13,970 nucleotides of DNA. It comes from JAWCQZ01 sp038869515 [NCBI: Halobacteria archaeon] (lineage in GTDB: Archaea; Halobacteriota; Syntropharchaeia; JACQPP01). The position numbers and the translations under genes are program-made. Under the pieces are notes generated by a model, which had not been told where the DNA came from, did no database searches, and saw nothing but the letters and a program-made list of their open reading frames with translations. Shown here piece by piece: positions 662-13,970 of the stretch. Position 1 is the stretch's first letter, and each line of letters opens with the position of its first letter. The DNA is taken from contig JAWCQZ010000013.1 in assembly GCA_038869515.1 (NCBI GenBank), positions 1 through 13,970 on the forward strand. Reading direction: 5' to 3'.

Positions 662-1969
662 TCAGCCGGATGCGGGAGGCATGTGGAGATGTGCCTCCTT
701 GCCTTTCCAAAAGTCAAAAAGGGCCCAAAAAAAGAGGACCCCGTTGAAGGCGACGAAGACCGGCACAGTCCAATCCCTGACCACGTAGATTTCGCGATTC
801 AGGTTCTGGAGGACGTGAGCGAGATTAAATAGGTAGGAACCGGAGAGGGCGACGTAAAGAAGACGGTCTCGCGGCCACGCCAGCACCAACAGGGCCAATG
901 CGGGGAACAGGTAGCGCTCATGGATGCGGGTGGACAGCATGAAGAAGGCAAAGAGAGTAAGGAAGGCGACCTGCAGAAACAGACGGTCCCGGTCCTCCAT
1001 TTTCGCGCAGGCTGCAGGATAGCGTTTATCGAGTTGCCACATCAAGAACCCGGCGATGCTCAAAAAAGACAACCACCCCCAACTCTGGTAAGACAGACCG
1101 AGAACGGTCGTCTGGTCGCTTACTCGCATCCCTGCCATGGCCCAAAAGGTGTAGGCATTGAGGCTTGTCTGCCGGAAAAGGTCGTAGGCCCCAAAGTATC
1201 GCTCGGCGATGAAGGCAATCGGGTTCGAAGCCCCCTGAAAGGGGGCAATCACGGCCAGGACCACGCCCCCGGCCACGATGGCCGACGAGATTGTGCGCTT
1301 CAGCCCCCCCTCCTGGAGGACCAGATAGGCAATAACCGGCAACACCAAGACGCCCTGAGGCTTGGTGAGCACCGCGAGGGCAAGAAGAGCGCCCGAGAGC
1401 TCGAAGCGCCTCCTCAGAACCGCCATAATCCCGCCGACCATAAAAATCGTGTAGAGGGAATCCCACTGGCCCCAGACGGCGAGGTCGAAGATTGTGGCGG
1501 GGTTGAAGGCATAGGCCGCGGCGCCCAGAAGGGCCACCCGGTGGCTTTTGGGCCTCAGCCAGACGTAAATCAGAATCACAATACCCAAGTCCGCGAGGTT
1601 TTGTGGCAGTTTCAGGAAGAGGGTCTCGGCGGGGCTGAACGGGGCAGAGATGGTTCCGAGGAGGCCGGCGGCCCCTTCGGCGCGGCCGATGATGGAAAAA
1701 ATCAGGATGTTAAACGGCGGATAGTCGCTGAAGACGGTGTTGTAGAAACCCGGGAGGTTTGTCGCGGCGGCAGCGTGCCAGAGAGCGAAGGCGTTCATGT
1801 CCTTCCACCAACCAGGAAGGGAGAAGAGTGCCCAACGGAGGGTGAGAGAGGCGGAGAGGAGAGCGGCTACGAGGAGGACCTCGCCGAGACTCCATCCCAC
1901 AACAGGTCGGGAAGTGGTCATCTCCCCGCCAATTTCGCGGACACTCTCAGCAGAGTTTGCAGAGCGCAT
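662..1969 (-). CDS. Gpi18-like GT-C membrane mannosyltransferase
   Basis: The 435-residue protein is very hydrophobic, with about ten membrane segments. It carries landmarks of polyprenyl-phosphate-sugar-dependent GT-C glycosyltransferases: an acidic residue in the first external loop (WWKDMN, D57), SDYPP at 81-85, NPATIFDLAVWGQWDSLY at 156-173, TKPQG at 202-206 and a late TRIHERYLFPAL at 347-358. The WGQWDSLY and HERYLFPAL pair is typical of the Gpi18-like mannosyltransferase group (COG5542). By family, it should transfer a sugar from a lipid carrier to a glycan or protein outside the membrane; donor and acceptor are unknown. It is the last gene of a three-gene operon. ATG at 1969 lies nine bases after the preceding stop, and a GGTGAGG Shine-Dalgarno-like sequence overlaps that stop codon, suggesting translational coupling. 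A second ATG at residue 17 has GGGGAG directly abutting it, too close to work well. GC is low for the window. Confidence 0.8.
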   Translation of the reverse strand: MRSANSAESVREIGGEMTTSRPVVGWSLGEVLLVAALLSASLTLRWALFSLPGWWKDMNAFALWHAAAATNLPGFYNTVFSDYPPFNILIFSIIGRAEGAAGLLGTISAPFSPAETLFLKLPQNLADLGIVILIYVWLRPKSHRVALLGAAAYAFNPATIFDLAVWGQWDSLYTIFMVGGIMAVLRRRFELSGALLALAVLTKPQGVLVLPVIAYLVLQEGGLKRTISSAIVAGGVVLAVIAPFQGASNPIAFIAERYFGAYDLFRQTSLNAYTFWAMAGMRVSDQTTVLGLSYQSWGWLSFLSIAGFLMWQLDKRYPAACAKMEDRDRLFLQVAFLTLFAFFMLSTRIHERYLFPALALLVLAWPRDRLLYVALSGSYLFNLAHVLQNLNREIYVVRDWTVPVFVAFNGVLFFWALFDFWKGKEAHLHMPPASG

Positions 1970-1978
1970 CAGCAGACC

Positions 1979-3586
1979 TCACCCCCAAAGGCCCAACGCA
2001 GGACGGAGGAGGGCCAGGAAGAGGAGTGCAGCAATGGTTATGAAGATGTACCTGAAACGAACGGGTTGCTTCCCCAACCAATAGGCCAGAACCGGGAGGC
2101 TGAGAACGAAGGGGAGGTAGTAGTGATAAAAATAGGTCGTCCGGGAAGGGATGGACAAGGGGAGCCACGCGGCGAAGAAGAAAACCGACAATACGAGGAG
2201 GGTCCACGTCTCTTTCGGGGTGGAGTCCGAAGCAGATTTTCGGCGCAAGAACGGGATTCCCGTCCAGAGTGCCCAAGCCATCAGCGGGAGGGACATCCAA
2301 GCGAGGAGCGGGTTCCCGATGGCCGTCACTCCGGAAACCGCTCCGCCCACCGCAAGGGTCGAATAGGGAGATGGGACCCAGGGAGAGAGCGGCCAACTCC
2401 ACCACGGGGAGTTCCACCCATCCTGCAGGTTGAAGGTGAAGATGGTGGAGTGATAGGAGAATATGCTCCTGGGCCCGCAGCACTGCTCGGCCAAGACGTC
2501 GCCGAGGCCAAAGCCGGCCGCGTAATAGGGTGCGTAGCTTCCCAAGTAGATGACTCCCGCGGTGAGGATGCCGCCGAGGACCGCCGGCCCGTATTTGCGA
2601 ACATCGACTCGCGGCCTTCGAATCAGCAACAGGAGGAGCAGAGCAGGGAACAGGAGAAGGGCGGTCCACTTGACGGCCGCCGCGGCCCCCAGCATCGACA
2701 AGGAAAGGACAAGAAAGAGCCGTCTCTCGGCGCGGAGGAAAAAGAGGGCGGAGAGGGATCCAAAAAGGACGAGGTGAACGTCGAGGAGCCCTAGGCGCGA
2801 ATAGGTGTAGTGAAGAGGGTTGAGCGCGAGAAGGAGAGTTGCCAAGAGGCCCGTGCGTGCCCCGGCCAGATGCGACCCGATGAGATAGACAACGATGAGC
2901 ACAAGGACTCCCGATGCGAGCTGGGGCAGCCTCCAACCCAGAGGGGACATTCCCGCCAGTCCCACTCCAAGAGCAATGATGTCTTTGCCGAGTGGAGGAT
3001 GGTCAAAATGGACGAATGGGGCCGATTGGGTGAGGTACTCCCGGGCCGTCCTCACGTAGATGATTTCGTCGTAAATGGCTCCGTAGAAGTAGTTTGGTGG
3101 CTCATTCAACAGAGTTTGTTCATCGAAGAGACGGGACGGGTCCCCGTAATTCGTCTCGATGCCATTGAGAACCCGTTTTTCGAAGCCCCGGAACAGATAC
3201 ACCTCGCCGATATGCGCGTCGGAGGTGAGGAGCAGACGTATCCGACCTTGGCAAGGGAGGTCAAGGTAGATCCACGAGTTGAACGAGGCCTTGCTGAGGC
3301 GGTTGGCGTCTCGGATTGGCGCGCCTCCGGAATCTTCGCAAATCGCCTTCGCGGCCAAGACCTCCGGAGTGCCGACATGGAAGTAGATTCGGTCGACGGG
3401 GCCGTCGGGGGCGACGACGACAGACACCTCCCCTCCGGTCCAAGGCTGCGACGGGATAGAGGAGGAGCCGATGCCCCAGAGGGCGACCGCTAGAAAGAGG
3501 ACGAGTATCGCCCCGAGGGTCCTCGGTGGATTCGCGGCGATGCGCGCTACGCTTTTAGGGATACCAGATGCGGACGGTTCCGTCAT
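1979..3586 (-). CDS. PMT/GT39-family protein O-mannosyltransferase with extra N-terminal soluble domain
   Basis: Counting from ATG at 3586 (535 residues), TM1 spans about 23-43. A soluble, beta-rich segment follows at about 50-145, then the external-loop motif YDEIIY with the Asp-Glu pair at 173-174, FDHPPLGK at about 194-201, and roughly ten further membrane segments including AAVKWTALLLFPALL. The DE pair plus HPPLGK is the signature of the PMT (GT39) glycosyltransferases, which move mannose from dolichyl-phosphate-mannose to Ser/Thr of exported proteins. The roughly 100-residue soluble insertion before the DE loop is not part of the usual PMT core and resembles a carbohydrate-binding beta-sandwich; that is my inference. 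An in-frame TTG at 3601 would add five residues, but ATG is preferred. The start overlaps the end of the WD40 gene by 32 nt in another frame, so the two are probably co-transcribed and coupled. Confidence 0.85.
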   Translation of the reverse strand: MTEPSASGIPKSVARIAANPPRTLGAILVLFLAVALWGIGSSSIPSQPWTGGEVSVVVAPDGPVDRIYFHVGTPEVLAAKAICEDSGGAPIRDANRLSKASFNSWIYLDLPCQGRIRLLLTSDAHIGEVYLFRGFEKRVLNGIETNYGDPSRLFDEQTLLNEPPNYFYGAIYDEIIYVRTAREYLTQSAPFVHFDHPPLGKDIIALGVGLAGMSPLGWRLPQLASGVLVLIVVYLIGSHLAGARTGLLATLLLALNPLHYTYSRLGLLDVHLVLFGSLSALFFLRAERRLFLVLSLSMLGAAAAVKWTALLLFPALLLLLLIRRPRVDVRKYGPAVLGGILTAGVIYLGSYAPYYAAGFGLGDVLAEQCCGPRSIFSYHSTIFTFNLQDGWNSPWWSWPLSPWVPSPYSTLAVGGAVSGVTAIGNPLLAWMSLPLMAWALWTGIPFLRRKSASDSTPKETWTLLVLSVFFFAAWLPLSIPSRTTYFYHYYLPFVLSLPVLAYWLGKQPVRFRYIFITIAALLFLALLRPALGLWG

Positions 3587-4664
3587 GAGAAGAGGATGCA
3601 ATCTGGCTCCCGTCGGGGCTCCAAGCCACGTCCCACACGGAGCGGTTGTGGCCGCTCAGATTCCGCAGGAGGATGCCTTTCGACGGGTCCCAGATGCGGA
3701 CCTCCCGGTCCATGGACCCTGAAGCGAGGAGGCCCCCGGTCGGACTCCAGGCCACGGACCACACCGGATTGGTCGGCCAAGTGGGCTTCTGGCGGTCGGT
3801 GAGCGTTCGCAGAAGGGAGCCGTTCAACGGATTCCAGATGTAGATTGCGCTGTCCAAAGAGCCTCCGGCCAGCCACATTCCATCAGGGCTCCAGGCGATG
3901 GACTCGACCTCTCCCCGCGGCGGCCTGAGCGTCCCCAGCAGGGAACCGGACGAGACTTCCCAAATGCGAACAACGAGTTCAGCCTCGATGGAGGCAAGTC
4001 GTGTTCCATCCGGGCTCCAAGAGACCGACTCCACGTTGCCGCCCCCCCGTCCGAGAGTCCGCAACAGGGCGCCAGTGGAGGGATTCCAGATGCGCGCCTG
4101 ACCCACCGGGGAGTTGGAGGCGAGAAGAGTTCCGTCCGGGCTCCAAGAGAGGGACCAGATTGCTGCGCCTGTCCCCTCCAGGGTCCGGAGGAGTGTGCCT
4201 GTGGCAGAGTCCCAAATCCGAATCCGCGTGTCACCCGATCCCGATGCCAATCGCGTCCCGTCCGGGCTCCACGCGAGCGCATAGACCCAATTTCCGTGCC
4301 CAACCCATGCCCGCACAAGAGACCCGGTGGAGGTCCAAATGTATATCTTTCCATCTTGGGAACTTGCCGCCAATCGGGTTCCATCGGGACTCCAAGCCAC
4401 AGAGAAGGCCCACGCAGAACTGCCGCGCATGACATGCAGAAGCCGATTTAGGATTGGCGTGTCTGTGACATTCCCAAGAGAAGACGCGTCGCCGCCTGCG
4501 GGCGAACGGCCCGGCCGGGCCTCCTGGCCCATGGCGACCACGAAGGCAGAAGCAGCGAGGACCCCGAGAAACAGGGACGGAGAGGGCCCGGCGCGATGCC
4601 TCCATCCGCTTCCATAGGAAGTATAGCCATTAAAGCATTGCAGCCGGCGTGAACTGGACCACAA
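3555..4664 (-). CDS. Exported seven-repeat WD40 beta-propeller protein
   Basis: Seven consecutive WD40 units of about 41-48 residues fill the protein from about residue 85 to its end. Each has a V-x-W-SPDG core and an R/Y-IW strand, so they should form one closed seven-bladed propeller. The repetition shows in the DNA as a GGAGCCCGG-type motif every 123-126 bp. Before the repeats, a hydrophobic stretch (about 29-46, LFLGVLAASAFVVAMG) looks like a signal peptide or membrane anchor, placing the propeller outside the cell. WD40 propellers are binding platforms; no catalytic motif is visible. The start is uncertain: the only in-frame NTG codons before the hydrophobic segment are TTG at 4664 and two CTGs, while a well-placed ATG at 4605 is in a different frame. 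It is the first gene of the operon with the two mannosyltransferases, which suggests a role in recognising or being modified as a surface glycoprotein. Confidence 0.85.
   Translation of the reverse strand: MWSSSRRLQCFNGYTSYGSGWRHRAGPSPSLFLGVLAASAFVVAMGQEARPGRSPAGGDASSLGNVTDTPILNRLLHVMRGSSAWAFSVAWSPDGTRLAASSQDGKIYIWTSTGSLVRAWVGHGNWVYALAWSPDGTRLASGSGDTRIRIWDSATGTLLRTLEGTGAAIWSLSWSPDGTLLASNSPVGQARIWNPSTGALLRTLGRGGGNVESVSWSPDGTRLASIEAELVVRIWEVSSGSLLGTLRPPRGEVESIAWSPDGMWLAGGSLDSAIYIWNPLNGSLLRTLTDRQKPTWPTNPVWSVAWSPTGGLLASGSMDREVRIWDPSKGILLRNLSGHNRSVWDVAWSPDGSQIASSSHDGTVRIWYP
4629..4635 (-). promoter_or_regulatory. Possible TATA box for the WD40-mannosyltransferase operon
   Basis: The minus strand carries CTTTAAT centred at about 4632. 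Archaeal TATA boxes sit about 26-27 nt before the transcription start, which would place the start at about 4605. That coincides with an ATG at 4605-4603, but this ATG is one frame away from the WD40 reading frame. The box lies inside the long TTG-start version of the gene, which argues that the real start is further downstream. Low AT content nearby makes the match stand out, but it is a single short motif. Confidence 0.35.
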
Positions 4665-4794: not shown

Positions 4795-5892
4795 CTAGCA
4801 GGTCGTCGACGCCAGCCAGGGGTTGTAGGTGTAGTCGAGGCTGAAGGTCCCGAGGCCGTTCAGGTGGGTCTCAATCGTGTAGGCGGGGTCGAGGAACCAG
4901 TCGCCCTTGTAGGCCGGCCCGTCGTCGCCGTCGTCCCAGCCCCAGGGCGGGTTGGCCGCGTCGTCGCCCTTGGTGTCGCCGTCGAAGGCGCCCCCGATGC
5001 TGTAGGTGAAGGAGTTGCGGGCCCCCTGGTAGGTGAAGGGCTTGTCGTAGAGTTGGCCGTTGCCGATGTTGCACCGGCGGCTCCAGAGCTCCTCCATGGG
5101 CTTCAGGACGTAGGTGGCCGAGGTGACCTTGCCGGTGGAGTGGCCGAGGTCGGAGGGATACTGGGCGACGGACCCGACCCGGTAAATCACGCCGTCGCCG
5201 CCGGGGAAGGTCCCGGGGGTGTGGCTGCAGGTGAAGGTCGAGGAGTAGAGGTCGGAGCAGACCCCGTGCCCCTTCGACTCGACGTAGAGGACTGGGTTCT
5301 TGCCGTTCTCGAACGCCACGCCAGCGTCCACGTTGTCGCTGCCGGTCGTGATGGCGGGGTCGTTGGTGAACTGGTAGAAGTTCCCGTGGGCCTGGGTCTC
5401 CATGAGGTGGAACGCCCCGTAGGGGGAGCCGTCCTTCCTGACGACCACCATCGCCCCCTCCATGTCGTTCTCGTGGCAGTCCGGGTCGGGGCCGCAGCCG
5501 CCGAGCCAGGCGTTGTTCCAGTCCCGGGGGTGGAAGTCGGCATAGGTGATGAAGTAGTGCGTCGGGGTCTCCGCGACGGCGTAATATACGTAGGCGAATT
5601 GCTTGTAGTTGTAGGTGTTCTCCCAGTTGTTGTTCCCCCTCCAGTCCCCGTCGAAGTTGACCGCGGCGATGTAGTCCTCCCGGTATTTCCCGGCGGTGTC
5701 CTGCCGCCAGACCGGGGCCCAGTGGTTGGCCAGTTCGGAGTAGGTCACGGCCTGGGCCACCCCGGAGAGGGTGAAAAGGAGGGCCACCGACAGGGTCAGG
5801 GTCAGGATGCCCCGGGGCTTGGAGTTTCGGTGGCCCGAGAGGCGGGTCCCGGGGCCTCCTTGCCGGGCAGGCAGGGAGAGGGAGCGGTCCAT
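4795..5892 (-). CDS. Secreted protein of unknown function with HENDxEG motif
   Basis: The 365-residue product starts with a long positive n-region and a hydrophobic core (about 29-44), followed by a VAQA cleavage site at 45-48, so it should be exported. The mature part is rich in aromatic residues, Gly and Asp. It contains ADFHPRDW (118-125), HENDMEG (140-146), and an acidic WGWDDGDDG stretch (about 317-325). Six cysteines at 133, 139, 212, 222, 274 and 365 could form disulfides. The HENDMEG and surrounding strand pattern vaguely recall the His-Asp-Trp-Glu motifs of NPP1-like or Vps62/DUF946-like proteins, but I cannot assign a family. The ATG is preceded by GGAGGA with only three bases between. 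No enzymatic function is claimed. It is upstream of, and in the same direction as, the WD40 operon, 130 bp away, and differs from it in base composition. Confidence 0.75.
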   Translation of the reverse strand: MDRSLSLPARQGGPGTRLSGHRNSKPRGILTLTLSVALLFTLSGVAQAVTYSELANHWAPVWRQDTAGKYREDYIAAVNFDGDWRGNNNWENTYNYKQFAYVYYAVAETPTHYFITYADFHPRDWNNAWLGGCGPDPDCHENDMEGAMVVVRKDGSPYGAFHLMETQAHGNFYQFTNDPAITTGSDNVDAGVAFENGKNPVLYVESKGHGVCSDLYSSTFTCSHTPGTFPGGDGVIYRVGSVAQYPSDLGHSTGKVTSATYVLKPMEELWSRRCNIGNGQLYDKPFTYQGARNSFTYSIGGAFDGDTKGDDAANPPWGWDDGDDGPAYKGDWFLDPAYTIETHLNGLGTFSLDYTYNPWLASTTC

Positions 5893-5917
5893 GGCTCCTC
5901 CAAGCGCCGGCTTTTGA

Positions 5918-5924
5918 GATAAAC
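5918..5924 (-). promoter_or_regulatory. Possible TATA box of the secreted-protein gene
   Basis: On the minus strand a TTTATC element lies about 29 nt before the ATG at 5892, in otherwise GC-rich DNA. That spacing would start transcription within a few bases of the ATG. No clear purine-rich BRE precedes it, so this is a weak call. Confidence 0.35.
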
Positions 5925-5967
5925 CAGGAGGAGGAAGGGGTGCGCCGGGTGAAAATCGGCATCGGCA

Positions 5968-5977
5968 GGCATATGCC
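5968..5977. repeat. 10-bp perfect palindrome in the divergent intergenic region
   Basis: GGCATATGCC reads the same on both strands. It lies 76 bp upstream of the minus-strand secreted-protein gene and 138 bp upstream of the plus-strand 7TM gene, so it could be an operator for either. A 10-bp palindrome may also occur by chance. Confidence 0.3.
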
Positions 5978-6042
5978 GGTGAGCGACTGACCGGTGGCCC
6001 CCCGGGGGTCCGCCGGGGGCAGGTGAGCTGCTCCCCGAAGGC

Positions 6043-6106
6043 GAAAGGATGAAGGCGAAAGGCGGAAGGGGCCCTTCATCCTTTAGCCTTCATCCTTCAT
6101 CCTTTC
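6043..6106. repeat. Inverted and direct repeats (AAGGATGAAGG / CCTTCATCCTT) before the 7TM gene
   Basis: GAAAGGATGAAGG at 6043-6055 is exactly complementary to CCTTCATCCTTTC at 6094-6106. Twelve of its bases also pair with CCTTCATCCTTT at 6073-6084, leaving a 17-nt loop. A third partial copy (CCTTCATCC) sits at 6087-6095. The left arm is repeated in part (GAAGGCGAAAGG). A TATA-like CTTTAG at 6081-6086 lies within the right-hand repeats, at the distance expected for a start near 6110. The structure occupies the promoter region of the 6116 gene, so it may be a regulatory site, or a repeat family seen here once. Confidence 0.55.
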
Positions 6107-6115
6107 CATGACCCG

Positions 6116-7345
6116 ATGGTCATCAACCCCTCCTCCATCCCCACCTTCGCCGCCCTCCTGGTGAACGCCGGCCTCGCCCTCTACCTCCTCCACCACGGCC
6201 CCCGGCGGGCGGCCAACCGGACCTTCGCCCTCCTCCTCGGCGCCCTGGCCGCCCACGCGGCGGCCACGGTGGTGCTCAAGAACGCCCCCTCGCCCGAGGT
6301 GGCCGCGACGGCGGTCCGTTTCCAGAGCGTCCTCCTCGCCGCCGCGGCCCCCGCATTCGTCCACTTCACCTTCGTCTTCCCCCGGGGCGAGTCCCCGGGC
6401 CCCCGGGCCCTGCTCCTCATCTACGGCGCCCTGCTCCCCCTGGCGGTCGCATCCTTCGCCGGCGAGGGGCCGGTCCAGGTCATCGAGACCCCCCTGGGCC
6501 CCACGAGCCGCTTCCTCGACAAGCCGGTGGCCCACTACTACGCGCTCCTCGGAGTCTTCCTCCTCCTGGCGCTCTACGGCCTCTTCCGCATCTACCGCTC
6601 CCACCGCGACGGGGGCGTGGTCGAGAAGCGGCAAATCCGCTGGGTGGTGGCGGGGATGCTCGCCGGGCTCGCGGGCGGGGCCCTGTTCAAGGTCGCGCTC
6701 CCGGAATTGGCGGGGGTTGACACCCCGGGCTCGGGCTCCGCGTCGGCCATCCTCCCCGCCCTATTCACCACCTGCGCCATCGTCCGCTACCGGTTCCTCG
6801 CCATCGAGCCGGTGGTGGAGCGGAAACTGGAGACGAGGCCCCGCTTCGCCCACCAGCCCGGCGTGCCCCTCCTGGTGAGCGCGGAGACCGGCCCCGCGGC
6901 CTTCAAGGACCTGGTGGACCACGGGGCCGCGGGGCTCGCCATCTCCAGGACCCACCCCGCGAAGCTGCGGGGCGAGTTGGGGCTGGAGAAGACGCCGGCG
7001 GTCTGGTTGAGCGGGGAGGCGGAGGGGGGCACGGCCTCCATCGAGCGGCCGGAGGAGGTTCTGCGGACCATCCGGCACTTCGTTTCATCCGCCGCGTCGC
7101 GAAACGACGCGGCGGCCCAAACCACGGCGGCCGGGCCGGACCCGGCTGCCGTGGTTTGGGTGGATGGCCTCGAATACCTGACCACGCGGTTCGGCTTCGA
7201 GGCGGCCCTGCGGGTGGTGCAGGACGTCCGGGACCTCGCCACCGCGAAGGGGGCGGTCCTGCTCTTCACCGTGGACCTCCGCGGGATGGGGGAGAGGGAG
7301 CGGGCGCTGCTGGAGAGGGAGTGCAAACCTCTGGGGCCGGGTTGA
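6116..7345 (+). CDS. Seven-TM membrane protein with C-terminal DUF835 domain
   Basis: Residues 1-230 contain seven hydrophobic segments, at about 10-27, 36-54, 66-88, 97-114, 138-158, 174-192 and 208-228. This matches the 7TM sensor region found at the N-terminus of some histidine kinases. The cytoplasmic part (about 250-405) matches DUF835, with ISRTHPAKLR at 276-285, AVWLSG at 295-300, VWVDGLEYLTTRFGFEA at 347-363 and LLFTVDL near 382-388. No kinase catalytic motifs are present, so it is best seen as a receptor with a DUF835 output or partner-binding domain; the ligand and signal are unknown. The ATG at 6116 is used because an earlier ATG at 6108 is in another frame. A stretch of about 20 extra residues (about 325-347) separates the two halves of DUF835 and is encoded by two back-to-back DNA hairpins. 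The next gene starts about 51 nt after its stop, in the same direction. Confidence 0.82.
   Translation: MVINPSSIPTFAALLVNAGLALYLLHHGPRRAANRTFALLLGALAAHAAATVVLKNAPSPEVAATAVRFQSVLLAAAAPAFVHFTFVFPRGESPGPRALLLIYGALLPLAVASFAGEGPVQVIETPLGPTSRFLDKPVAHYYALLGVFLLLALYGLFRIYRSHRDGGVVEKRQIRWVVAGMLAGLAGGALFKVALPELAGVDTPGSGSASAILPALFTTCAIVRYRFLAIEPVVERKLETRPRFAHQPGVPLLVSAETGPAAFKDLVDHGAAGLAISRTHPAKLRGELGLEKTPAVWLSGEAEGGTASIERPEEVLRTIRHFVSSAASRNDAAAQTTAAGPDPAAVVWVDGLEYLTTRFGFEAALRVVQDVRDLATAKGAVLLFTVDLRGMGERERALLERECKPLGPG
7089..7115. repeat. Intragenic hairpin 1 (11-bp perfect stem)
   Basis: CCGCCGCGTCG at 7089-7099 and CGACGCGGCGG at 7105-7115 are exactly complementary, with loop CGAAA. It lies inside the coding region of the DUF835 protein and directly abuts the larger hairpin that starts at 7116. 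Confidence 0.85.
7116..7160. repeat. Intragenic hairpin 2 (20-bp stem, one G-T wobble, 5-nt loop)
   Basis: Arms 7116-7135 and 7141-7160 pair over 20 positions. The outer 13 bp (CCCAAACCACGGC against GCCGTGGTTTGGG) and the inner 6 bp (GCCGGG against CCCGGC) are perfect. The only exception is G7129 opposite T7147, a wobble in RNA. The loop is CCGGA. Together with hairpin 1 it covers 72 bp, exactly 24 codons, in the linker within DUF835. Confidence 0.9.
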
Positions 7346-7396
7346 GCCCGGGGACCGCAGACTTTTCCGGTGGCCGGGCCCACATCGGATTCGGCA

Positions 7397-8476
7397 ATGC
7401 CCTCCCGCGCCGACGAGGCCCGCCGCGTCATCGAGGGGAACGCCGGCCCCCGCGGCTTCTACGCCGGCCGCGACTGCCGCCAATACCGGGTCCGGGACCT
7501 CGTCTTCAGCATGGAGGCCCTGCTCCGCCTCGGCCACCAGGAGCGGGTCGAGAGCCACATGGCGCTCCTCCTCGACCGGATGAAGCCCGACGGGCGCGTC
7601 CCCGCCCGCGTCGAGACCGCCGGGGGCCTCCGCAAAGGGGTGCGCCCGCGCCTCTGGCTCACCGCACTCCGGCAGCGGGGGCCCTACATCCTCCGGAACC
7701 TGGGGCAGTACTCCGACCCCTTCCAGTCGTGGACCATGGACAGCGCGCCTCTCGCCCTCACCGGCCTCCGGCGCCTCCAGCGGGCGAAGTCCAGACTCCC
7801 CCGGGGGCGGGCCGCGGAAATCACGCGGCTGAAGGCGTGGGTGGACTCCCGGCGCGACCCCGAGACGGACCTCCTGCGGGGGGCGGGCTGGATGGACGCC
7901 ATGGACGTCTATAGCGGGCGGTTCACCCTCTGCGGCCTCGCCGTGATGCACCGGATGCGCGTCGCCTGGGGAGAGGGGAAGGCCGCCGAGAGGCTCCGGC
8001 GGGTCCTCGACGTGGGGTTCTGGGACCCCGCCCTCGGCTTCTATCGCGACCACGACCGGGGGCGCGCCTTCGACACCCTCGCCCACGCGCTGCTCCTCCA
8101 GGACGGGGCCGTGCCCGAGGAGCGGGCGCCAAAAGTGTTGAGCGCGCTGGAGTGGGCCGCGACCAGGTTCGGCTACCTGAACCTGACCCCGCCCTATCCC
8201 GCCCACGCCTGCGGCCAGTGGCCGCGGGTCTACCAGAACTCGACGGTCTGGCCCTTCGTGCAGGGGCAGGCCATCCTCGCCCTGGCGAAGGCGGGGGAGG
8301 AGGGGGCCGCGCGGAGGGAGATGAGGAAGTTGGAGGCGTTGGAGGGGTTCGGCGAGTGGCACGACCCCGGGACGGGACGGCCCATGGGGAGCGCGGAACA
8401 GCTCTGGAGCGCTGCCTCCTTCCTTCAAGCGTTGGAAGCGGTGACAGGAGAGCCTATCGAGGGTCCCGCAAAGTAA
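7397..8476 (+). CDS. Six-hairpin (alpha/alpha) glycosidase-like protein
   Basis: With ATG at 7397 the product has 359 residues and no signal peptide. It is almost entirely helical, with motifs typical of (alpha/alpha)6-barrel glycosidases such as glycogen-debranching enzymes and glucoamylases: RDLVFSMEALL near 32-42, FQSWTMDSAPLAL at 109-121, GWMDAMDVYSGRF at 164-176, QNSTVWPFVQGQAILAL at 280-296, EWHDPGTG at 320-327 and SAEQLWSAASFLQAL at 332-346. The family hydrolyses alpha-glycosidic bonds, but I cannot assign the substrate or name the catalytic acids with certainty. An in-frame GTG at 7370 would add nine residues. ATG is preferred because it lies about 33 nt after a weak TATA-like CTTTTC, fitting a near-leaderless mRNA. 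It may instead be co-transcribed with the preceding DUF835 gene. A cytoplasmic role in polysaccharide or glycan turnover is an inference. Confidence 0.65.
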   Translation: MPSRADEARRVIEGNAGPRGFYAGRDCRQYRVRDLVFSMEALLRLGHQERVESHMALLLDRMKPDGRVPARVETAGGLRKGVRPRLWLTALRQRGPYILRNLGQYSDPFQSWTMDSAPLALTGLRRLQRAKSRLPRGRAAEITRLKAWVDSRRDPETDLLRGAGWMDAMDVYSGRFTLCGLAVMHRMRVAWGEGKAAERLRRVLDVGFWDPALGFYRDHDRGRAFDTLAHALLLQDGAVPEERAPKVLSALEWAATRFGYLNLTPPYPAHACGQWPRVYQNSTVWPFVQGQAILALAKAGEEGAARREMRKLEALEGFGEWHDPGTGRPMGSAEQLWSAASFLQALEAVTGEPIEGPAK

Positions 8477-8504
8477 AATGGAGGAAGTCGGGGTTGCAGA
8501 TGCA

Positions 8505-9488
8505 TCACCGCGCCCCGGACTCCTCGTTCTGTCGCAGTTTCTCCCTGGCCGCCCCGAGGGCCTTGGCCGCCTCCTCGAGCATCCTCCGCTCCTGGGCCTT
8601 GCGGGCCTTGAACTTCAGGATGCGGCGGCCCGCCTCGGCCCCCTCCTCCACCACCGGCACGAACTCCTCGGGCGGCATGTTGAGCCAGACGATGCGGCCG
8701 AACCCGCACGGGGGGCAGAGGAAGGCGACCTCGCTCGCCGCGAGTTCGACGGAGATGGCGTCCACCCGCTCCATCTCGCTGTTGCACGAGGGGCAGACCT
8801 TCATCTGCCCGAGCGAGACCTTCGGGGCCTTCAGGCGCTTGAGCGAATCCTCCCACACGATGCGGTTGGGGTCGCCGGTGACCTGGCAGAGGTAGACAAG
8901 GCGCTGGAGGGCGCTCTTCATCGCCTCCCGGGAAGCGAGGTCGCCCCGGCGGATCTTGTCCAGGAGCTCCTCCTTCTCCTTCTCGGCAGCCACCGGGTCC
9001 ACCGGCTCCGCCTCCTTGAAGAGCCCCTTCTCCAGCAACGCGCCGACGTGCTCAACCGCCCACGCCTCCCACGAGGCGTGGTTGAGCGACCCCGCGACCC
9101 TCTCGAAATCCCCCGAGAGGGGAACCCCGGTCTCCTGTTCGAGTGATGCGAGGATGCGCCGGGTGTGGTAGAGGGCCTGCTCCGCGCGGACGACGGTCGC
9201 CTTCGCGTCCCGGATGCGCGCCTCGAGGTCGCGGCGGGTCGCGACTCCCTCCGCGGCCATGTGGGTGAGGAGGAAGTAGAGGCGGGGGAAGACCGCGAGG
9301 AACATCTGGCCTGCGGGGGTCCCGCCGTGCTTGCGGACCAGTTCTTCGGGGGGCGGCGGGGTCTGCCGGGTCACCCGGAGGGCCGACTTGATGAACTTCC
9401 TCTCGTCGGGGAAGAACTCCCGGAGGACCTGTTCCAGCAACGGGGGGAGTTTCTCGAAGAGGGTGGCGAGGACCGGCTCGGAGGGCAT
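8505..9488 (-). CDS. Zinc-ribbon protein of unknown function
   Basis: The 327-residue protein has no signal peptide and no clear membrane segment. It is largely helical, with a charged coiled-coil-like stretch around 155-182. A four-cysteine knuckle follows, CPSC at 232-235 and CPPC at 258-261, spaced as in a zinc ribbon, then IVWLNMPPEEFVPV and a basic C-terminal helix (about 284-320). I do not recognise the family. Zinc ribbons of this kind often bind nucleic acid or protein, which would suit its position: it is divergent from the Vms1-like peptidyl-tRNA hydrolase, sharing a 156-bp intergenic region with it. It converges with the glycosidase-like gene, 28 bp apart. ATG at 9488 is chosen because a TATA-like sequence lies at the right distance upstream. 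Confidence 0.72.
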   Translation of the reverse strand: MPSEPVLATLFEKLPPLLEQVLREFFPDERKFIKSALRVTRQTPPPPEELVRKHGGTPAGQMFLAVFPRLYFLLTHMAAEGVATRRDLEARIRDAKATVVRAEQALYHTRRILASLEQETGVPLSGDFERVAGSLNHASWEAWAVEHVGALLEKGLFKEAEPVDPVAAEKEKEELLDKIRRGDLASREAMKSALQRLVYLCQVTGDPNRIVWEDSLKRLKAPKVSLGQMKVCPSCNSEMERVDAISVELAASEVAFLCPPCGFGRIVWLNMPPEEFVPVVEEGAEAGRRILKFKARKAQERRMLEEAAKALGAAREKLRQNEESGAR

Positions 9489-9516
9489 GGGGTCCTGGGG
9501 ATGGGGGGTGGGGGAC

Positions 9517-9526
9517 TATGAAATTT
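9517..9526 (-). promoter_or_regulatory. Possible TATA box of the zinc-ribbon protein gene
   Basis: The minus strand reads AAATTTCATA, centred about 33 nt upstream of the ATG at 9488, an AT-rich island in GC-rich DNA. Transcription would start a few bases before the ATG. The rest of the divergent region (9527-9644) holds an imperfect dyad at 9551-9590 but no stronger promoter for the plus-strand gene. Confidence 0.4.
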
Positions 9527-9644
9527 GGGGTCGGTCCGGCCGTGACAGAACTCGCGCGCAGCGAAAATTCTTGTGAGACTTTCGAGCGAGGTCCATCCGC
9601 TTCCCACCGGAATCCTTACCTCGAATCGCGCACAGGCAGGGCAG

Positions 9645-10679
9645 ATGGAGTTCCTCCTTCAACCCCCCGACTGGTGGCGCCTCAACACCTCCCTGCGCAC
9701 CCTCGTCGGCGCCCGCTCCCCCTCCATCTCCGCCTACGTCCCCGCCGGAAAGGAGGCCAGATTCCTCAAGGTTTTGGAACGTCCACCCCGCGAGGCTCCC
9801 GAGGAGCCCGATACGGCCCCCGTCGCCGCCGCCCTCCGCAAAGCCCTCGAAGCCCACGGCCCGGTCCACGGCACCCTCTGCCTTTTCGGCTGGGGCCCCG
9901 ACGCGCCCGAAGTCCGCTCCATCGAGGTCCCGGCCAAGTTGCGCCACTCCTACGGCGTGGCCCCGGAGCCCTTCGTCGGGCCCCTGCGCGAGTTGCTGGA
10001 GCCGCGCTGCTCCTTCGTCCTGGTTCAGGTCAATCACCACGACGCCACCGTGCGCCGCTACGAGGGGCTGGAGGTGGTCGGCCAGAAGAGGGTCCGCTCC
10101 TACGTGGAGCGCCACCACAAGAAGGGGGGCGCAAGCGCCGGTCGCTACCAGCGAGGGCAGCAGGAGCAGGTTCACCAGCACCTCGTCAATGTGCGGCGGA
10201 CCCTGGGGCGGTTCATTCCCGGCGCCGACCTCATCCTCGTGGGGGGGCCGGGGACCGCCAAGGTCCGGTTCATGGAGCTCCTCGGGGCCGCACCCGCCCC
10301 CCGGGCGCGGCAGGTGGAGGGGATGGGGCCCACCACATCCGGCAAAGAGTTTTACCGCCTCCTCCGGGAGGCCCTCGACGCGTTCCGCCTGGACGAGGAG
10401 TTCCGGTTTGTGGAGCGGGCGGTGGAGGGGACCCGAGCCGGCCTCCTCCTCACGGACGCGGGCGGTGTCGCCAGGGCCCTGGAAGCAGGGGCGGTGGAGG
10501 CTCTCCTGGTGGCGGCCGACGCCCGGGACGTGGACGGAGTTGTGGCCCGGATGGTGGAGGCCGCGGGCAGGAGCGGCGCCCGGGTGGAGTTCATCACCCG
10601 CGCCGAGCCGCGCGCCCGCCTCCGGCGCCACGGAGAGGTCGCGGCGCGACTCCGCTACCCCTGGAAGAAAGATTCATAG
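9645..10679 (+). CDS. Vms1/Ankzf1-like (VLRF1, eRF1-related) peptidyl-tRNA hydrolase
   Basis: From ATG at 9645 the protein has 344 residues. It opens with MEFLLQPPDWW, then an early segment with SISAYVPAGKE (about 27-37), a beta-rich domain with CSFVLVQVNHHDATVRRYEGLEVVG (about 122-146) and a catalytic-type loop, HHKKGGASAGRYQRGQQEQ at 157-175. After this come a helix (VHQHLVNVRRTLGRF), a strand with DLILVGGPG (194-203) and a C-terminal eRF1-domain-3-like region. This architecture is that of the VLRF1 branch of the eRF1 superfamily, which cleaves peptidyl-tRNA on stalled ribosomes. The position expected for the Gln of a GGQ-like motif is Ala163; a Gln at 169 (GRYQ) could serve instead. An in-frame upstream start at 9573 would add 24 residues unlike the family. 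It is followed by atpF after 21 nt. Confidence 0.75.
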   Translation: MEFLLQPPDWWRLNTSLRTLVGARSPSISAYVPAGKEARFLKVLERPPREAPEEPDTAPVAAALRKALEAHGPVHGTLCLFGWGPDAPEVRSIEVPAKLRHSYGVAPEPFVGPLRELLEPRCSFVLVQVNHHDATVRRYEGLEVVGQKRVRSYVERHHKKGGASAGRYQRGQQEQVHQHLVNVRRTLGRFIPGADLILVGGPGTAKVRFMELLGAAPAPRARQVEGMGPTTSGKEFYRLLREALDAFRLDEEFRFVERAVEGTRAGLLLTDAGGVARALEAGAVEALLVAADARDVDGVVARMVEAAGRSGARVEFITRAEPRARLRRHGEVAARLRYPWKKDS

Positions 10680-10700
10680 CCCGCGCTCCCCATCCGGGCG

Positions 10701-11003
10701 ATGGACGTCGCGGTCGTCGGCTCCCCGACATTCGTTCTCGGCTTCCGCCTCGCCGGGGTCCGGAAGACCTGCCCCGCCGAGGGGGCCCGGGATCTGGAGG
10801 CGCGCATCGGCGAGGTGCTGAAGGACCCCTCCGTCGGAGTCCTCGTCCTCCACAACGCCGACTACCAGGAGCTCCCGGCCGGGCTCCGCCGCCGCCTCGC
10901 GGACTCGGTCGCCCCGGTGGTGATTCCCGTCGGGAAGGAGGAGGAGACCGACCTGCGGGAGAGAATCAAGCAGGCGGTCGGGATTGACTTGTGGAAAAAG
11001 TAA
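10701..11003 (+). CDS. atpF: A/V-type ATP synthase subunit F
   Basis: The 100-residue protein matches subunit F of archaeal A-type (V-type) ATPases end to end, with the expected length. It starts MDVAVVGSPTFVLGFRLAGVRK, continues with a VLKDPSVGVLVLH strand and a VAPVVIPVGKE strand, and ends with the hallmark IKQAVGIDLWK. Subunit F belongs to the central stalk of the A1 motor and couples ATP turnover to rotation and regulation. It is normally encoded among the other ATPase subunit genes, but here its neighbours are a peptidyl-tRNA hydrolase 21 nt upstream and a convergent peptidase 10 nt downstream. It is probably co-transcribed with the hydrolase. Whether it is the only copy cannot be seen from this window. 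Confidence 0.92.
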   Translation: MDVAVVGSPTFVLGFRLAGVRKTCPAEGARDLEARIGEVLKDPSVGVLVLHNADYQELPAGLRRRLADSVAPVVIPVGKEEETDLRERIKQAVGIDLWKK

Positions 11004-11013
11004 ACCGGGCGCA

Positions 11014-12225
11014 TCATGCGTATTTGTCACCCGCCCAGCTGGCGGCGATGGCCCAGGTCCACTCCACGGCCTCGGCGGCGACCTTCAGGTCCACGTTGTC
11101 CGGGGTGTCAGTGGGCCAGTGGTAGTTCTCCACGTAGCCGATTTCGAGAAGCCCGAGGAGGCTTACTCCCCGCAGGCCGAAGCGGATGAGAACCTGGCCG
11201 TCGGTCCCTGCCGGGGCATCCTCGACCGGCAGCGGACGCCTCCCGAGGCGCCGGGCCGCGGCCTCCACCAGCTCCCCGGCGATGGGCGGGTAGGGAACGG
11301 CGCCCGGGATGAGGTAGCCCGCCTCCCGGGCGAGCCGGCAGAGCCTGCCCGAGCCCAGGGACTCCAGGTTCACGAAAATCGTGGGCTTGTCCCGGAGTCC
11401 GCCCGCGTGCCTCTTGCAGAAGGCCGCGGCCCCCTTCAGGCCCAGCTCCTCGGCGTCCGTGGCCACGCACCACACCTCCAGGTCCTTCGGGCAGCGCTCC
11501 CGGAGGCCTCCCGCCACGGCCATCATCGCGGCCACCGCCGACGCGTTGTCGCCGGCGGCGGGGATGGGCGCTCCCCGGGCCCAGTCCGCCATGATGAGGA
11601 TGCCGAAGGAGAGGGAGGCCGCGCCGTAGAGGGCCGGGACGGCGACGGCCGGGCCCGCGACCCAGTGGCGGGCCAGGGCCGAGAGCACCACCGCCGCAAC
11701 CCCCAGGTTCAGGAGGAAGAACGGGGCTCGCAGGAAGAGGGGCCAGTTCTTCGTGGCCTGCGCGAATTTCCGGGCCCGCCCGGGCTCGAAGACCCGGGCC
11801 TGGCGGGTCCCGTCGTGGTGCGCGAGGACCACCAGGCGCCGCGCCCCCGACGGATTCCACCGGCCCACGATGTTCGCCCCCCGGCGCCGGGCGAGGAGCA
11901 GGTTGAAGAGGTCGTAGCGGCCGGTCTCGGAGCCGTAGACCGAGACCAGGACGAGGAGGGAGAGGCCGAGCGCCGGCGTGGGGTGGCCCGCCAGGGTCAG
12001 GAGGGCCGAGGCGACGAGGAGGGAGAAGTGCAAGACGAGGCCGTGGGGGTGGGAGGCGCGGAAGTCGAACTCCTCGGCCTCCGTCGCGAGGCCCGCGGCC
12101 TCCATGCTCTTCCGGATTTCGGCGGCCGCGGCCCGGCACTCGAGAGAACCGGAGACCCGGTGGCCCCCCGCGCAGAGGAGGCGAATCCACCGGTCGAGGA
12201 GGGCGGTGACCGGCTCCGGGGCCAT
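11014..12225 (-). CDS. Membrane M28-family zinc metallopeptidase
   Basis: The 403-residue protein carries the five M28 metal-binding elements in order: LAHHDG (His136, Asp138), GDNASAVA (Asp226), TDAEELGLKG (Glu259 and Glu260), NLESLG (Glu288) and NYHWPTDTPDN (His369). All ligands are present, so it should be an active dizinc aminopeptidase or related hydrolase. Hydrophobic segments at about 63-80, 84-97, 164-184 and 189-212 make it an integral membrane protein. The latter two sit between the HxD and DN motifs, which in ordinary M28 enzymes lie much closer together. The ATG at 12225 follows GGAGAG with little spacing. A TTAACT stretch about 23 nt upstream and a TTTTAAAA at 12273-12280 are candidate promoters. 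The gene end nearly meets atpF, with a small palindrome (11010-11020) across both ends. Confidence 0.82.
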   Translation of the reverse strand: MAPEPVTALLDRWIRLLCAGGHRVSGSLECRAAAAEIRKSMEAAGLATEAEEFDFRASHPHGLVLHFSLLVASALLTLAGHPTPALGLSLLVLVSVYGSETGRYDLFNLLLARRRGANIVGRWNPSGARRLVVLAHHDGTRQARVFEPGRARKFAQATKNWPLFLRAPFFLLNLGVAAVVLSALARHWVAGPAVAVPALYGAASLSFGILIMADWARGAPIPAAGDNASAVAAMMAVAGGLRERCPKDLEVWCVATDAEELGLKGAAAFCKRHAGGLRDKPTIFVNLESLGSGRLCRLAREAGYLIPGAVPYPPIAGELVEAAARRLGRRPLPVEDAPAGTDGQVLIRFGLRGVSLLGLLEIGYVENYHWPTDTPDNVDLKVAAEAVEWTWAIAASWAGDKYA

Positions 12226-12272
12226 GGCTCTCCAAGGAGGCGGAGAGTTAAGGCGGTTGCGCCCCGGCAGGG

Positions 12273-12280
12273 TTTTAAAA
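12273..12280. promoter_or_regulatory. Palindromic TATA box between divergent genes
   Basis: TTTTAAAA is symmetric and is the most AT-rich spot in the region. Its centre is 24 nt upstream of the GTG at 12300, which suits a leaderless plus-strand transcript, and 51 nt upstream of the minus-strand M28 start, giving that gene a short leader. A symmetric box could direct transcription both ways. Confidence 0.5.
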
Positions 12281-12299
12281 CAGGGGGGGCAGTTTTTTC

Positions 12300-12779
12300 G
12301 TGACCGGCTACGCCGCCCAGTTCAGCGACATCGGGCGGGAGGTGGGGAAGGGGGTGGCGGACGTCGTCGGCGAGCGGGTGGCCAGGACCTCGGGGAACTT
12401 CATCACCGAGTTCTTCTCCGCCTTCGGGCTCAGCGACCCCGTCGCCGCCTACGGGGTCCTCTTCGGCCTCGTCGGGGGCCTGGCGGCCCTGTTCTACGCG
12501 GGGTTCCGGCAGAGGCGCAGGGAGGAGCGGGAGGCGCCCGCGGTGGAGGCGCCCGCGCCGAGCGGGACGCCCCGCCTGGAGTGGTTCCTCCTCGACGCCC
12601 ACCAGCAGTATGTCCGCGGCGAAATCACGCAGGAGCAGTTCCAGGTGCTGGTGAAGGCCCACGCCGATTTGGCGAAGACGGTGGCGAGCGTCAGGAAGCC
12701 GGCCGCGGGGGCCCCGAAGGCCCCTCCCAAGCCCGCGGCCGGGGTCCCGCGCAAGCAACCCCGGTCCCGGGCGAGATAG
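12300..12779 (+). CDS. Small single-TM protein with SHOCT-like segment
   Basis: The 159-residue protein starts at GTG 12300; no in-frame ATG occurs early and the palindromic TATA box fits this start. An amphipathic N-terminus (about 1-45) is followed by one membrane segment (about 47-68, AAYGVLFGLVGGLAALFYAGF) and a strongly basic/acidic stretch RQRRREEREA. Next is a short helical segment, FLLDAHQQYVRGEITQEQFQVL at about 96-117, which resembles the SHOCT motif, in which a G-E-I-T-x-E-x-F turn joins two short helices. The C-terminus is a Pro/Ala/Lys/Arg-rich tail, probably disordered and cytoplasmic. SHOCT segments are thought to mediate oligomerisation. No specific function can be given. It is divergent from the M28 peptidase, 74 bp apart, and may be co-regulated with it. 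Confidence 0.7.
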   Translation: MTGYAAQFSDIGREVGKGVADVVGERVARTSGNFITEFFSAFGLSDPVAAYGVLFGLVGGLAALFYAGFRQRRREEREAPAVEAPAPSGTPRLEWFLLDAHQQYVRGEITQEQFQVLVKAHADLAKTVASVRKPAAGAPKAPPKPAAGVPRKQPRSRAR

Positions 12780-12843
12780 GGGCCCGGTCGCCCTCCGACA
12801 GGGAGGAGGCCCGCGCCCCGTCCCGCCTCGCCGGCAACGGGCG

Positions 12844-13845
12844 TTACTTCCTCGGGCCGCCGTTCAAGTATCCGTTCTCCTTGAGCCAGCGGTACTCCTT
12901 CTCCACCGCCTCCCTCACCGGCGTCCGGGGGAGGCCGAGTTCGCGCCGCGCCTTGGAGGGGTCCACGCAATGGTGGGCGAAGGCGCCCCGGACGGTGGCG
13001 GGGTCGAGCCACGCCAGGGCGCCCGTGGAGCGCTTCGAGAGGGGCGCGGCCAGGTAGGCCACGGCGAGGGCGACCGGCTTGATGAGTTTCGCCTTGGGCG
13101 GCCTCTTGCCGACCACCTCGGACACCAGGGTGAGGAACTCCTTCCAGGCCATGTTCTGGTTGCCGAGGATGTAGCGCTGGCCGACGCGCCCCTTCTCCAT
13201 CGCCAGCAGGTGGCCGAGGGCCGCGTCCTCGACGTCGATGAAGTTGTTGGAGCCGGTGGTGTAGAACGGAATGCCCCGCTTCGCGATGATTTGCAGGATG
13301 AGCCCCGACGTGGGTTTCACGTCCCAGGGGCCGAACATGGTGGAGGGGTTCACGACCTTCGCGGGCAGCCCCTTTTTTGCGAACCCGAGGACGAGCTCCT
13401 CCCCCTTGTGCTTCGTGGTGTGGTAGGGGCTCTTGACCCGGTCCAGGTCGTAGGGGGTCTCCTCGTTGGCGGGTTTATCGAGGGTCCCGGTCGCGACCGC
13501 CGCCGTGCTGCTGGTGTGGACGAACCCCTCCACGTTCTCCTCGAGCGCCGCCTTGCAGATGTTCTCGGTCCCCCGGACGTTCACGGCCCACATCTGCTTC
13601 TCCTTCCATTTTCCGCCCACGACGCCGGCCACGTGGTAGACCCGCCGGACTCCGCCCATCGCCCGCTTCACCGATGCGGGGTCGGTGACGTCGCCGCTGA
13701 CCACCTCGGCCCCGAACTTCTTGACGAACCCGATGCCGTTGCTGGTGGGGCGGGCGAGGACGCGGATCTTCTCGCCGCGCTTGGAGAGTTGATTGACGAC
13801 GTTCAGTCCGACCAGGCCCGTCGCGCCCGTGACCAGAGTGGTCAT
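12844..13845 (-). CDS. NAD-dependent epimerase/dehydratase (extended SDR)
   Basis: The 333-residue protein has a complete extended-SDR layout: the TGATGLVG nucleotide-binding loop at 6-13, a GDVTD acidic strand end at 51-55, HVAGVVGG at 71-78, the HTSSTAAV strand with the catalytic Ser near 112-113, and the YHTTK catalytic pair Tyr141/Lys145. PSTMFGPWD (about 167-175) and NNFIDVEDAALGHLLAME (about 199-216) are conserved substrate-domain elements. The family includes sugar-nucleotide epimerases, dihydroflavonol-4-reductase-like enzymes and 3-beta-hydroxysteroid dehydrogenase-like enzymes; the sequence resembles the HpnA/DFR-like group, but the substrate is not predictable. It is cytosolic and single-copy here. 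The ATG at 13845 is supported by a TATA box at the ideal leaderless distance. Its end converges with the SHOCT-like gene, with 64 bp between. Confidence 0.88.
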   Translation of the reverse strand: MTTLVTGATGLVGLNVVNQLSKRGEKIRVLARPTSNGIGFVKKFGAEVVSGDVTDPASVKRAMGGVRRVYHVAGVVGGKWKEKQMWAVNVRGTENICKAALEENVEGFVHTSSTAAVATGTLDKPANEETPYDLDRVKSPYHTTKHKGEELVLGFAKKGLPAKVVNPSTMFGPWDVKPTSGLILQIIAKRGIPFYTTGSNNFIDVEDAALGHLLAMEKGRVGQRYILGNQNMAWKEFLTLVSEVVGKRPPKAKLIKPVALAVAYLAAPLSKRSTGALAWLDPATVRGAFAHHCVDPSKARRELGLPRTPVREAVEKEYRWLKENGYLNGGPRK

Positions 13846-13901: not shown

Positions 13902-13970
13902 TGCGCGCGGGGGGCGCCCCCCCGCCCAAAGGGCGGGCCCCCCCCCCGGGCGCCCCCCCCCCGGGCGGGG
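13902..13970. repeat. Low-complexity G/C palindromic tail at the window end
   Basis: The last ~70 bases are almost only G and C, with runs of up to twelve C. They contain nested inverted repeats, including CCCGCCC-AAA-GGGCGGG at 13921-13937. No gene is visible. It may be a strong hairpin downstream of a neighbouring gene, or a mis-assembled contig end. Confidence 0.6.

What the first reader, a model, noticed from the sequence alone, without database searches (positions are those of the whole stretch)
7089..7160. Two abutting hairpins, exactly 24 codons long, inside a DUF835 gene
Positions 7089-7115 form an 11-bp perfect stem (loop CGAAA), and 7116-7160 form a 20-bp stem with one G-T wobble (loop CCGGA), with no base between them. 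Such long near-perfect stems are unlikely by chance, even at high GC. The 72 bp encode a low-complexity Ala-rich linker between two conserved halves of DUF835, where the family normally seems to need few residues. The single mismatch is a G-T wobble, as if RNA pairing were preserved. It could be an in-frame palindromic mobile element, an RNA regulatory structure that pauses translation or transcription, or a protein-binding site.
Basis: partly seen in the sequence, partly recalled or inferred. Interest (0 to 1): 0.72.

Follow-up and report, generated by a model that had tools for sequence, protein, structure and literature searches.

The report
Inverted duplication inside DUF835 sensor gene
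Two back-to-back DNA hairpins in the middle of a probably archaeal signalling gene are real and far beyond chance, and they look most like the scar of a copying or repair error that doubled short stretches back-to-front in a spot where the protein tolerates extra residues, though no close relative could be reached to prove it.

Summary
The hairpins are present as described. Hairpin 1 (7089-7115): 11 Watson-Crick pairs, loop CGAAA. Hairpin 2 (7116-7160): 20 pairs with one G-T, loop CCGGA. No base lies between them; MFE -67.6 kcal/mol, z -10. A stem as long as hairpin 2 (21 pairs with a flanking G-T) appeared in 0 of 3000 codon permutations of the gene. The gene is HisKA_7TM-DUF835. Pfam places 21 residues where the DUF835 profile has 5 positions, an excess of 16 residues or 48 nt; removing 16 residues raises the DUF835 score from 81.7 to 93.3 bits. 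The last 13 nt of hairpin 2's right arm encode profile-aligned AVVWV, while the left arm lies wholly in the expanded linker, so it is most simply an inverted copy of the right arm. Best explanation: inverted duplication by template switching or fold-back repair, kept because it stayed in frame in a tolerant linker. The G-T joins two third codon positions and is no evidence for RNA selection. Own genome, close relatives and other copies could not be reached, so ancestry, mobility and compensatory change are untested.

The parts
6116..7345 (+). Gene: N-terminal HisKA_7TM membrane region, C-terminal DUF835 (409 aa)
7089..7115 (+). Hairpin 1: arms 7089-7099 and 7105-7115, 11 Watson-Crick pairs, loop CGAAA 7100-7104
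7116..7160 (+). Hairpin 2: arms 7116-7135 and 7141-7160, 20 pairs with one G-T (7129/7147), loop CCGGA 7136-7140
7116..7135 (+). Left arm of hairpin 2, proposed inverted copy of 7141-7160
   Evidence: lies wholly in the expanded linker 7085-7147; copy direction is inferred
7085..7147 (+). Linker of 21 residues where the DUF835 profile has 5 positions (73-77): excess 16 residues, 48 nt; which 16 are extra is not determined
7148..7162 (+). Profile-aligned residues A-V-V-W-V (DUF835 profile from position 78); 13 of its 15 nt are the 3' part of hairpin 2's right arm
   Evidence: strand from 7151 in the model

Best explanation
The two abutting hairpins are short inverted duplications made by one or two template-switch (or fold-back break-repair) events in a DUF835 gene. 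Shown: the stems exist beyond chance; the gene carries about 48 nt more than the family profile at this point; the outer part of hairpin 2's right arm encodes profile-aligned residues, while its left arm and both loops lie in the expanded linker. Inferred: the left arm of hairpin 2 was copied back-to-front from the right arm, and one arm of hairpin 1 from the other. Inferred: the exact abutment at 7115|7116 marks where two inverted copy tracts met, for instance two ends that each folded back, were extended on themselves and were then joined. The result persisted because the net change stayed in frame and fell between a helix and a strand, where added Ala-rich residues are tolerated. No dedicated RNA or DNA function is needed.
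For: Stem length beyond the nulls (0 of 3000 codon permutations reach 21; 0 of 300 rounds over 12 genes). Net excess of 16 residues, found both with the halves scanned apart (profile 72 at 7082-7084, profile 78 at 7148-7150) and in the whole domain (145 residues on 129 positions). Score 81.7 bits as is, 93.3 with the 16 residues of 7100-7147 removed, 87.6 with 10 removed. Right arm partly in profile-aligned residues, left arm in the linker. Single-sequence AlphaFold2 model (mean pLDDT 69.5; the other four models 53-62; blocks holding the linker 81, 61 and 66) has a helix to residue 86 (7115-7117), then a loop and short turn, then a strand from residue 98 (7151). One departure in 31 pairs, at third codon positions. 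Template switching making stems in one step is described (PMC8794818: outline and part 1 of 2 of its Results read), as is its effect on yeast coding DNA (PMC8604942: abstract read).
Against: No relative without the insertion was found, so no ancestral state is shown. The two inverse-copy tracts sum to 31 nt, which is neither 48 nor a multiple of three, so priming overlap, extra bases or older linker variation must be assumed. The profile does not tell how variable this linker is in close relatives. Codon adaptation does not favour the proposed direction: the 7 codons of the right arm score 0.39, the 7 of the left arm 0.63, upstream flank 0.75. The W in the right arm is not the residue of the consensus that I recalled there, so some right-arm bases may be derived. 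With the protein held fixed, 114 of 20000 synonymous redraws still reach 21 pairs, so the amino acids alone carry much of the pairing.
Confidence: 0.62

Rival explanations
1. An RNA structure selected for function: the double hairpin in the mRNA slows ribosomes between two halves of the DUF835 fold, stabilises the message or binds a protein.
For: Very stable (-67.6 kcal/mol, z -10). The one non-Watson-Crick pair is a G-T. Both hairpins have third codon positions facing each other, so pairing can be kept by silent changes.
Against: No Rfam family at gathering score in the window. No terminator-like site in 5800-7500. The heptamers CCCAAAC and TTTGGGT are in the wrong phase for -1 frameshifting. 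A G-T is what about half of transitions would leave anyway. No comparative evidence either way.
Confidence: 0.14
2. An in-frame palindromic mobile element of the Rickettsia palindromic element or REP type, inserted into the gene.
For: A palindromic in-frame excess in a protein linker resembles such elements, which occur within coding regions of known proteins (PMC3733652, passages). Hairpin 1's 11-bp stem and 5-nt loop are within the range given there for GTAG elements.
Against: No second copy in the window, no phage match, no hairpin 1 in viral contigs. Hairpin 2's 20 bp exceeds the 5-13 bp given for GTAG and 8-9 bp for CGTC elements. No GTAG or CGTC tag adjoins either stem by inspection (CGTC occurs at 7095-7098, inside the stem). 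The right arm coincides with profile-aligned residues of the host protein, which an inserted element would not be expected to supply.
Confidence: 0.08
3. Gradual origin: high GC and Ala-rich codons in a loose linker happened to build a long palindrome.
For: Local GC is 77% and GC3 of the gene 95%; stems of 11-13 with G-T allowed occur in 3 of the other 11 genes. A survey reports palindromes over-represented in most prokaryotic coding regions, less so in archaea (PMC4060949, passages).
Against: Shuffling the 25 codons among themselves gives at most 18 pairs in 20000, and 0 of 3000 gene permutations reach 21.
Confidence: 0.08
4. An assembly or amplification artefact (fold-back chimera).
For: Fold-back chimeras make inverted repeats (recalled); no genome is held for the window, and its end is low-complexity C/G runs.
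Against: The reading frame stays open across the feature and the downstream half still matches DUF835 at E 3.1e-14; an artefact would keep frame in about one case of three.
Confidence: 0.08

Closest known systems
Template-switch mutations creating perfect stems (PMC8794818; PMC8604942 in yeast coding DNA)
   Same: Short near-perfect reverse-complement copies next to their source; in coding DNA they change neighbouring amino acids.
   Different: Here no ancestor is at hand, so the event is inferred from the family profile and the anatomy; two tracts abut.
Coding palindromes in Nematomorpha mitochondrial genes (PMC6649704)
   Same: Long inverted repeats within translated genes; that paper also reports, in a few cases, insertions encoding hydrophilic residues opposite an arm that encodes needed hydrophobic ones, as AQTTAAG stands opposite AVVWV here.
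   Different: Those reach 284 bp, are numerous, perfect, and both arms encode conserved residues; here two short ones in a 14-kb window, one arm in an expanded linker.
Rickettsia palindromic elements and GTAG/CGTC REPs (PMC3733652)
   Same: Palindromic and in frame within a gene.
   Different: No repeat family found, no end tag seen, hairpin 2's stem longer, one arm overlaps profile-aligned codons.

Membership tests
DUF835 (PF05763) | Profile match above the curated cut-off of 33.1 bits | tested here: met
   78.1 bits for the protein; 81.7 bits for the domain alone
Template-switch / inverted-duplication scar | Near-perfect reverse-complement copy beside its source, beyond chance | tested here: met
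Template-switch / inverted-duplication scar | Ancestor or sister sequence without the copy | tested here: inconclusive
   only the family profile lacks the stretch; no close relative reached
Rickettsia palindromic element / REP-like mobile element | Several dispersed copies in one genome | tested here: inconclusive
   no other copy in 13,970 bases with up to 3 mismatches; own genome not held
GTAG or CGTC REP superfamilies | Stem of 5-13 bp (GTAG) or 8-9 bp (CGTC) with a terminal GTAG or CGTC tag outside the pairing | tested here: not met
   hairpin 2 has 20 bp; hairpin 1 (11 bp) fits the GTAG length only; no tag adjoins either stem by inspection; feature list from passages
-1 frameshift signal | X XXY YYZ heptamer in phase, a few nt before the structure (recalled definition) | tested here: not met
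   in 7040-7170 only CCCAAAC (7116) and TTTGGGT (7155), inside or at the end of hairpin 2 and out of phase
Known structured RNA (Rfam 15) | Score above a family's gathering threshold | tested here: not met
   0 matches in the window

The most novel reading that the evidence does not exclude
The double hairpin is one copy of an uncharacterised in-frame palindromic element, or a selected coding-RNA pair, that recurs in genes of this lineage and adds linker residues to sensor proteins.
Probability: 0.1. Interest if true: 0.6.

Novelty: new member of a known kind. Interest (0 to 1): 0.27.

Why it matters
If right, it is a clear single-locus example of how an inverted copying error can lengthen a protein linker in a cellular, probably archaeal, gene. 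It also warns that a very stable hairpin in a coding region with a G-T wobble need not be a regulatory RNA. If relatives instead showed conserved pairing or dispersed copies, it would become a new family of coding palindromes.

Tried and rejected
Own-genome search: none held. Relatives: the one genome-contig scan gave 2 loci, both matching only within residues 79-236, the HisKA_7TM part, in a Bacteroidetes and an Ignavibacteriae MAG. Three viral-contig scans with the window protein or with DUF835 alignments gave no relative; one with the neighbouring epimerase gave none. tblastn of the DUF835 part at E 0.1 in plasmids and phages: no match. DUF835 in 395 genomes of the phylum of G001: 1 match, 20.8 bits, below the cut-off, not used; 2 of 14 control genomes ring, 0 over the cut-off. 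PDB sequence search: none at E 1. PDB fold search of the moderate-confidence model: no match at E 0.001 or below; first row a WRN helicase domain, then KaiC chains, with FlaH, RadA and RecA chains lower. This agrees with the label iKaiC for DUF835 in PMC5847659 (one passage seen) but proves nothing.

Two arm matches in viral contigs share one sequence context, without a pairing arm; the ORFs of one of the two, L003, were listed and look phage-like to me. The plasmid match was judged chance. Frameshifting, terminator and Rfam families: rejected. The target hairpin of diversity-generating retroelements came to mind from a listing; not tested.

Literature: four searches were looked through for a coding palindrome of this kind in archaea; none was evident in the rows shown, which were 15 of 23, 15 of 50, 2 of 2 and 10 of 121 papers, titles and abstract starts only. 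This is no proof of absence in print. Opened further: PMC6649704 (outline, passages, Discussion), PMC8794818 (outline, Results part 1 of 2), PMC8604942 (outline with abstract), PMC3733652, PMC4060949 and PMC5847659 (passages).

Full report
Observation. The sequence at 7089-7160 was read and scanned for inverted repeats. Hairpin 1 has arms 7089-7099 and 7105-7115, 11 Watson-Crick pairs and loop CGAAA; with a three-base interruption it continues outward to 7082-7122 (18 nt arms, 83%). Hairpin 2 has arms 7116-7135 and 7141-7160, 20 pairs, loop CCGGA, and one G-T between 7129 and 7147. RNA folding of the 72 nt returns exactly these two stems at -67.6 kcal/mol; 200 dinucleotide shuffles average -36.0 and none is as low. 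In a 151-nt context both stems persist (z -6.0).

Chance. With G-T allowed, hairpin 2 has 21 pairs (7115-7161), the longest uninterrupted stem with a loop of 3-12 on this strand of the window. Permuting the gene's codons with the hairpin codons left out gave no stem over 18 in 3000 rounds, and shuffling the 25 local codons among themselves gave at most 18 in 20000. Over 12 genes, 300 permutation rounds gave at most 18, and 100 rounds of synonymous codons at most 17. With the local protein held fixed and codons drawn by window usage, 114 of 20000 draws reach 21 or more, so the amino-acid sequence itself carries much of the palindrome. Hairpin 1 alone is mildly unusual: 27 of 3000 permuted genes hold an 11-bp Watson-Crick stem. 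Its direct abutment is the striking part, about 1.5e-5 by that rate.

Context. The gene at 6116-7345 matches HisKA_7TM and DUF835. One paper passage lists DUF835, labelled iKaiC, in archaeal response regulators (PMC5847659). The host is not told; an archaeon is my inference from DUF835.

Where the extra residues are. Scanned apart, the part upstream of the hairpins matches DUF835 profile positions 6-72, ending at 7082-7084, and the part downstream matches 78-135, starting at 7148-7150. So 21 residues stand where the profile has 5 positions. The ends of local matches are approximate, but the whole domain gives the same net figure: 145 residues on 129 positions, an excess of 16 residues or 48 nt. 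Removing the 16 residues encoded by 7100-7147 lifts the domain score from 81.7 to 93.3 bits; removing 10 gives 87.6. A consensus typed from recall matched the profile with no net length difference. Which 16 of the 21 residues are extra is not determined.

Anatomy. The last 13 nt of hairpin 2's right arm belong to the profile-aligned residues AVVWV, whereas its left arm lies wholly in the expanded linker. A single-sequence AlphaFold2 model of the domain (best mean pLDDT 69.5, pTM 0.65; other models 53-62) has a helix at residues 64-86, then a loop with a three-residue turn, then a strand at 98-102; confidence is lower over the linker (blocks of 61 and 66). By codon count the hairpin-1 residues form the end of the helix, hairpin 2's left arm the loop, and the strand begins at 7151. 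Both hairpins pair third with third codon positions.

Mechanism. The simplest reading is that the left arm of hairpin 2 is a reverse-complement copy of the right arm, made by template switching or by fold-back extension of a broken end, and that hairpin 1 arose in the same or a second event. The zero-base abutment would be the point where the two copy tracts met. This is inference. The copied tracts sum to 31 nt, which neither equals 48 nor is a multiple of three, so priming overlap, extra bases or older linker variation must be added. Codon adaptation gives no help and leans the other way: right arm 0.39, left arm 0.63, 7 codons each. That template switching can make a stem in one event is described in PMC8794818 (outline and first part of Results read), and its action in yeast coding DNA in PMC8604942 (abstract read). 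Inverted repeats within translated genes, in a few cases with insertions of hydrophilic residues opposite arms that encode needed hydrophobic ones, are described for Nematomorpha mitochondria (PMC6649704: outline, passages and Discussion read).

The G-T. It joins the third bases of GCG (Ala) and GCT (Ala), so either base could have changed silently. About half of transitions in a perfect stem leave a G-T on a given strand. It is therefore not evidence for RNA selection.

Rivals. No Rfam match in the window, no terminator-like site in 5800-7500, and slippery-like heptamers out of phase. No second copy in the window, no phage match, hairpin 1 absent from viral contigs, two viral-contig matches to one arm without its partner, and a weak match in two plasmid records judged chance. 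The strongest tests, the own genome and close relatives, could not be made, so the mobile-element and functional-RNA readings are weakened, not excluded.

Verdict. Real and improbable by chance; most likely a tolerated inverted-duplication scar, a known kind of mutation in a new place. Confidence 0.62.

Noticed in passing
6037-6106: A second long imperfect inverted repeat (arms of 19 nt at 95%, 33 nt at 82%) of heptamer-like units lies just upstream of the start codon of the same gene. An exact 22-mer of it also occurs between two genes in viral contig L006, and in the same context in L007, both 54% GC.
   Followed up: partly
662-4664 versus 4795-13845: Composition step: the three genes on the left have GC3 0.70-0.74, the nine on the right 0.87-0.96. 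The left genes include WD40 repeats and a protein with weak, below-cut-off matches to mannosyltransferase models.
   Followed up: no
9573-10679: An eRF1-like protein over the Pfam cut-offs of acVLRF1 and baeRF family 10 and, below cut-off, matching aRF1 and Rv2629-family hibernation factor models.
   Followed up: no
13904-13969: Low-complexity C/G runs with tandem 15- and 19-nt units at the end of the window, perhaps a contig end.
   Followed up: no
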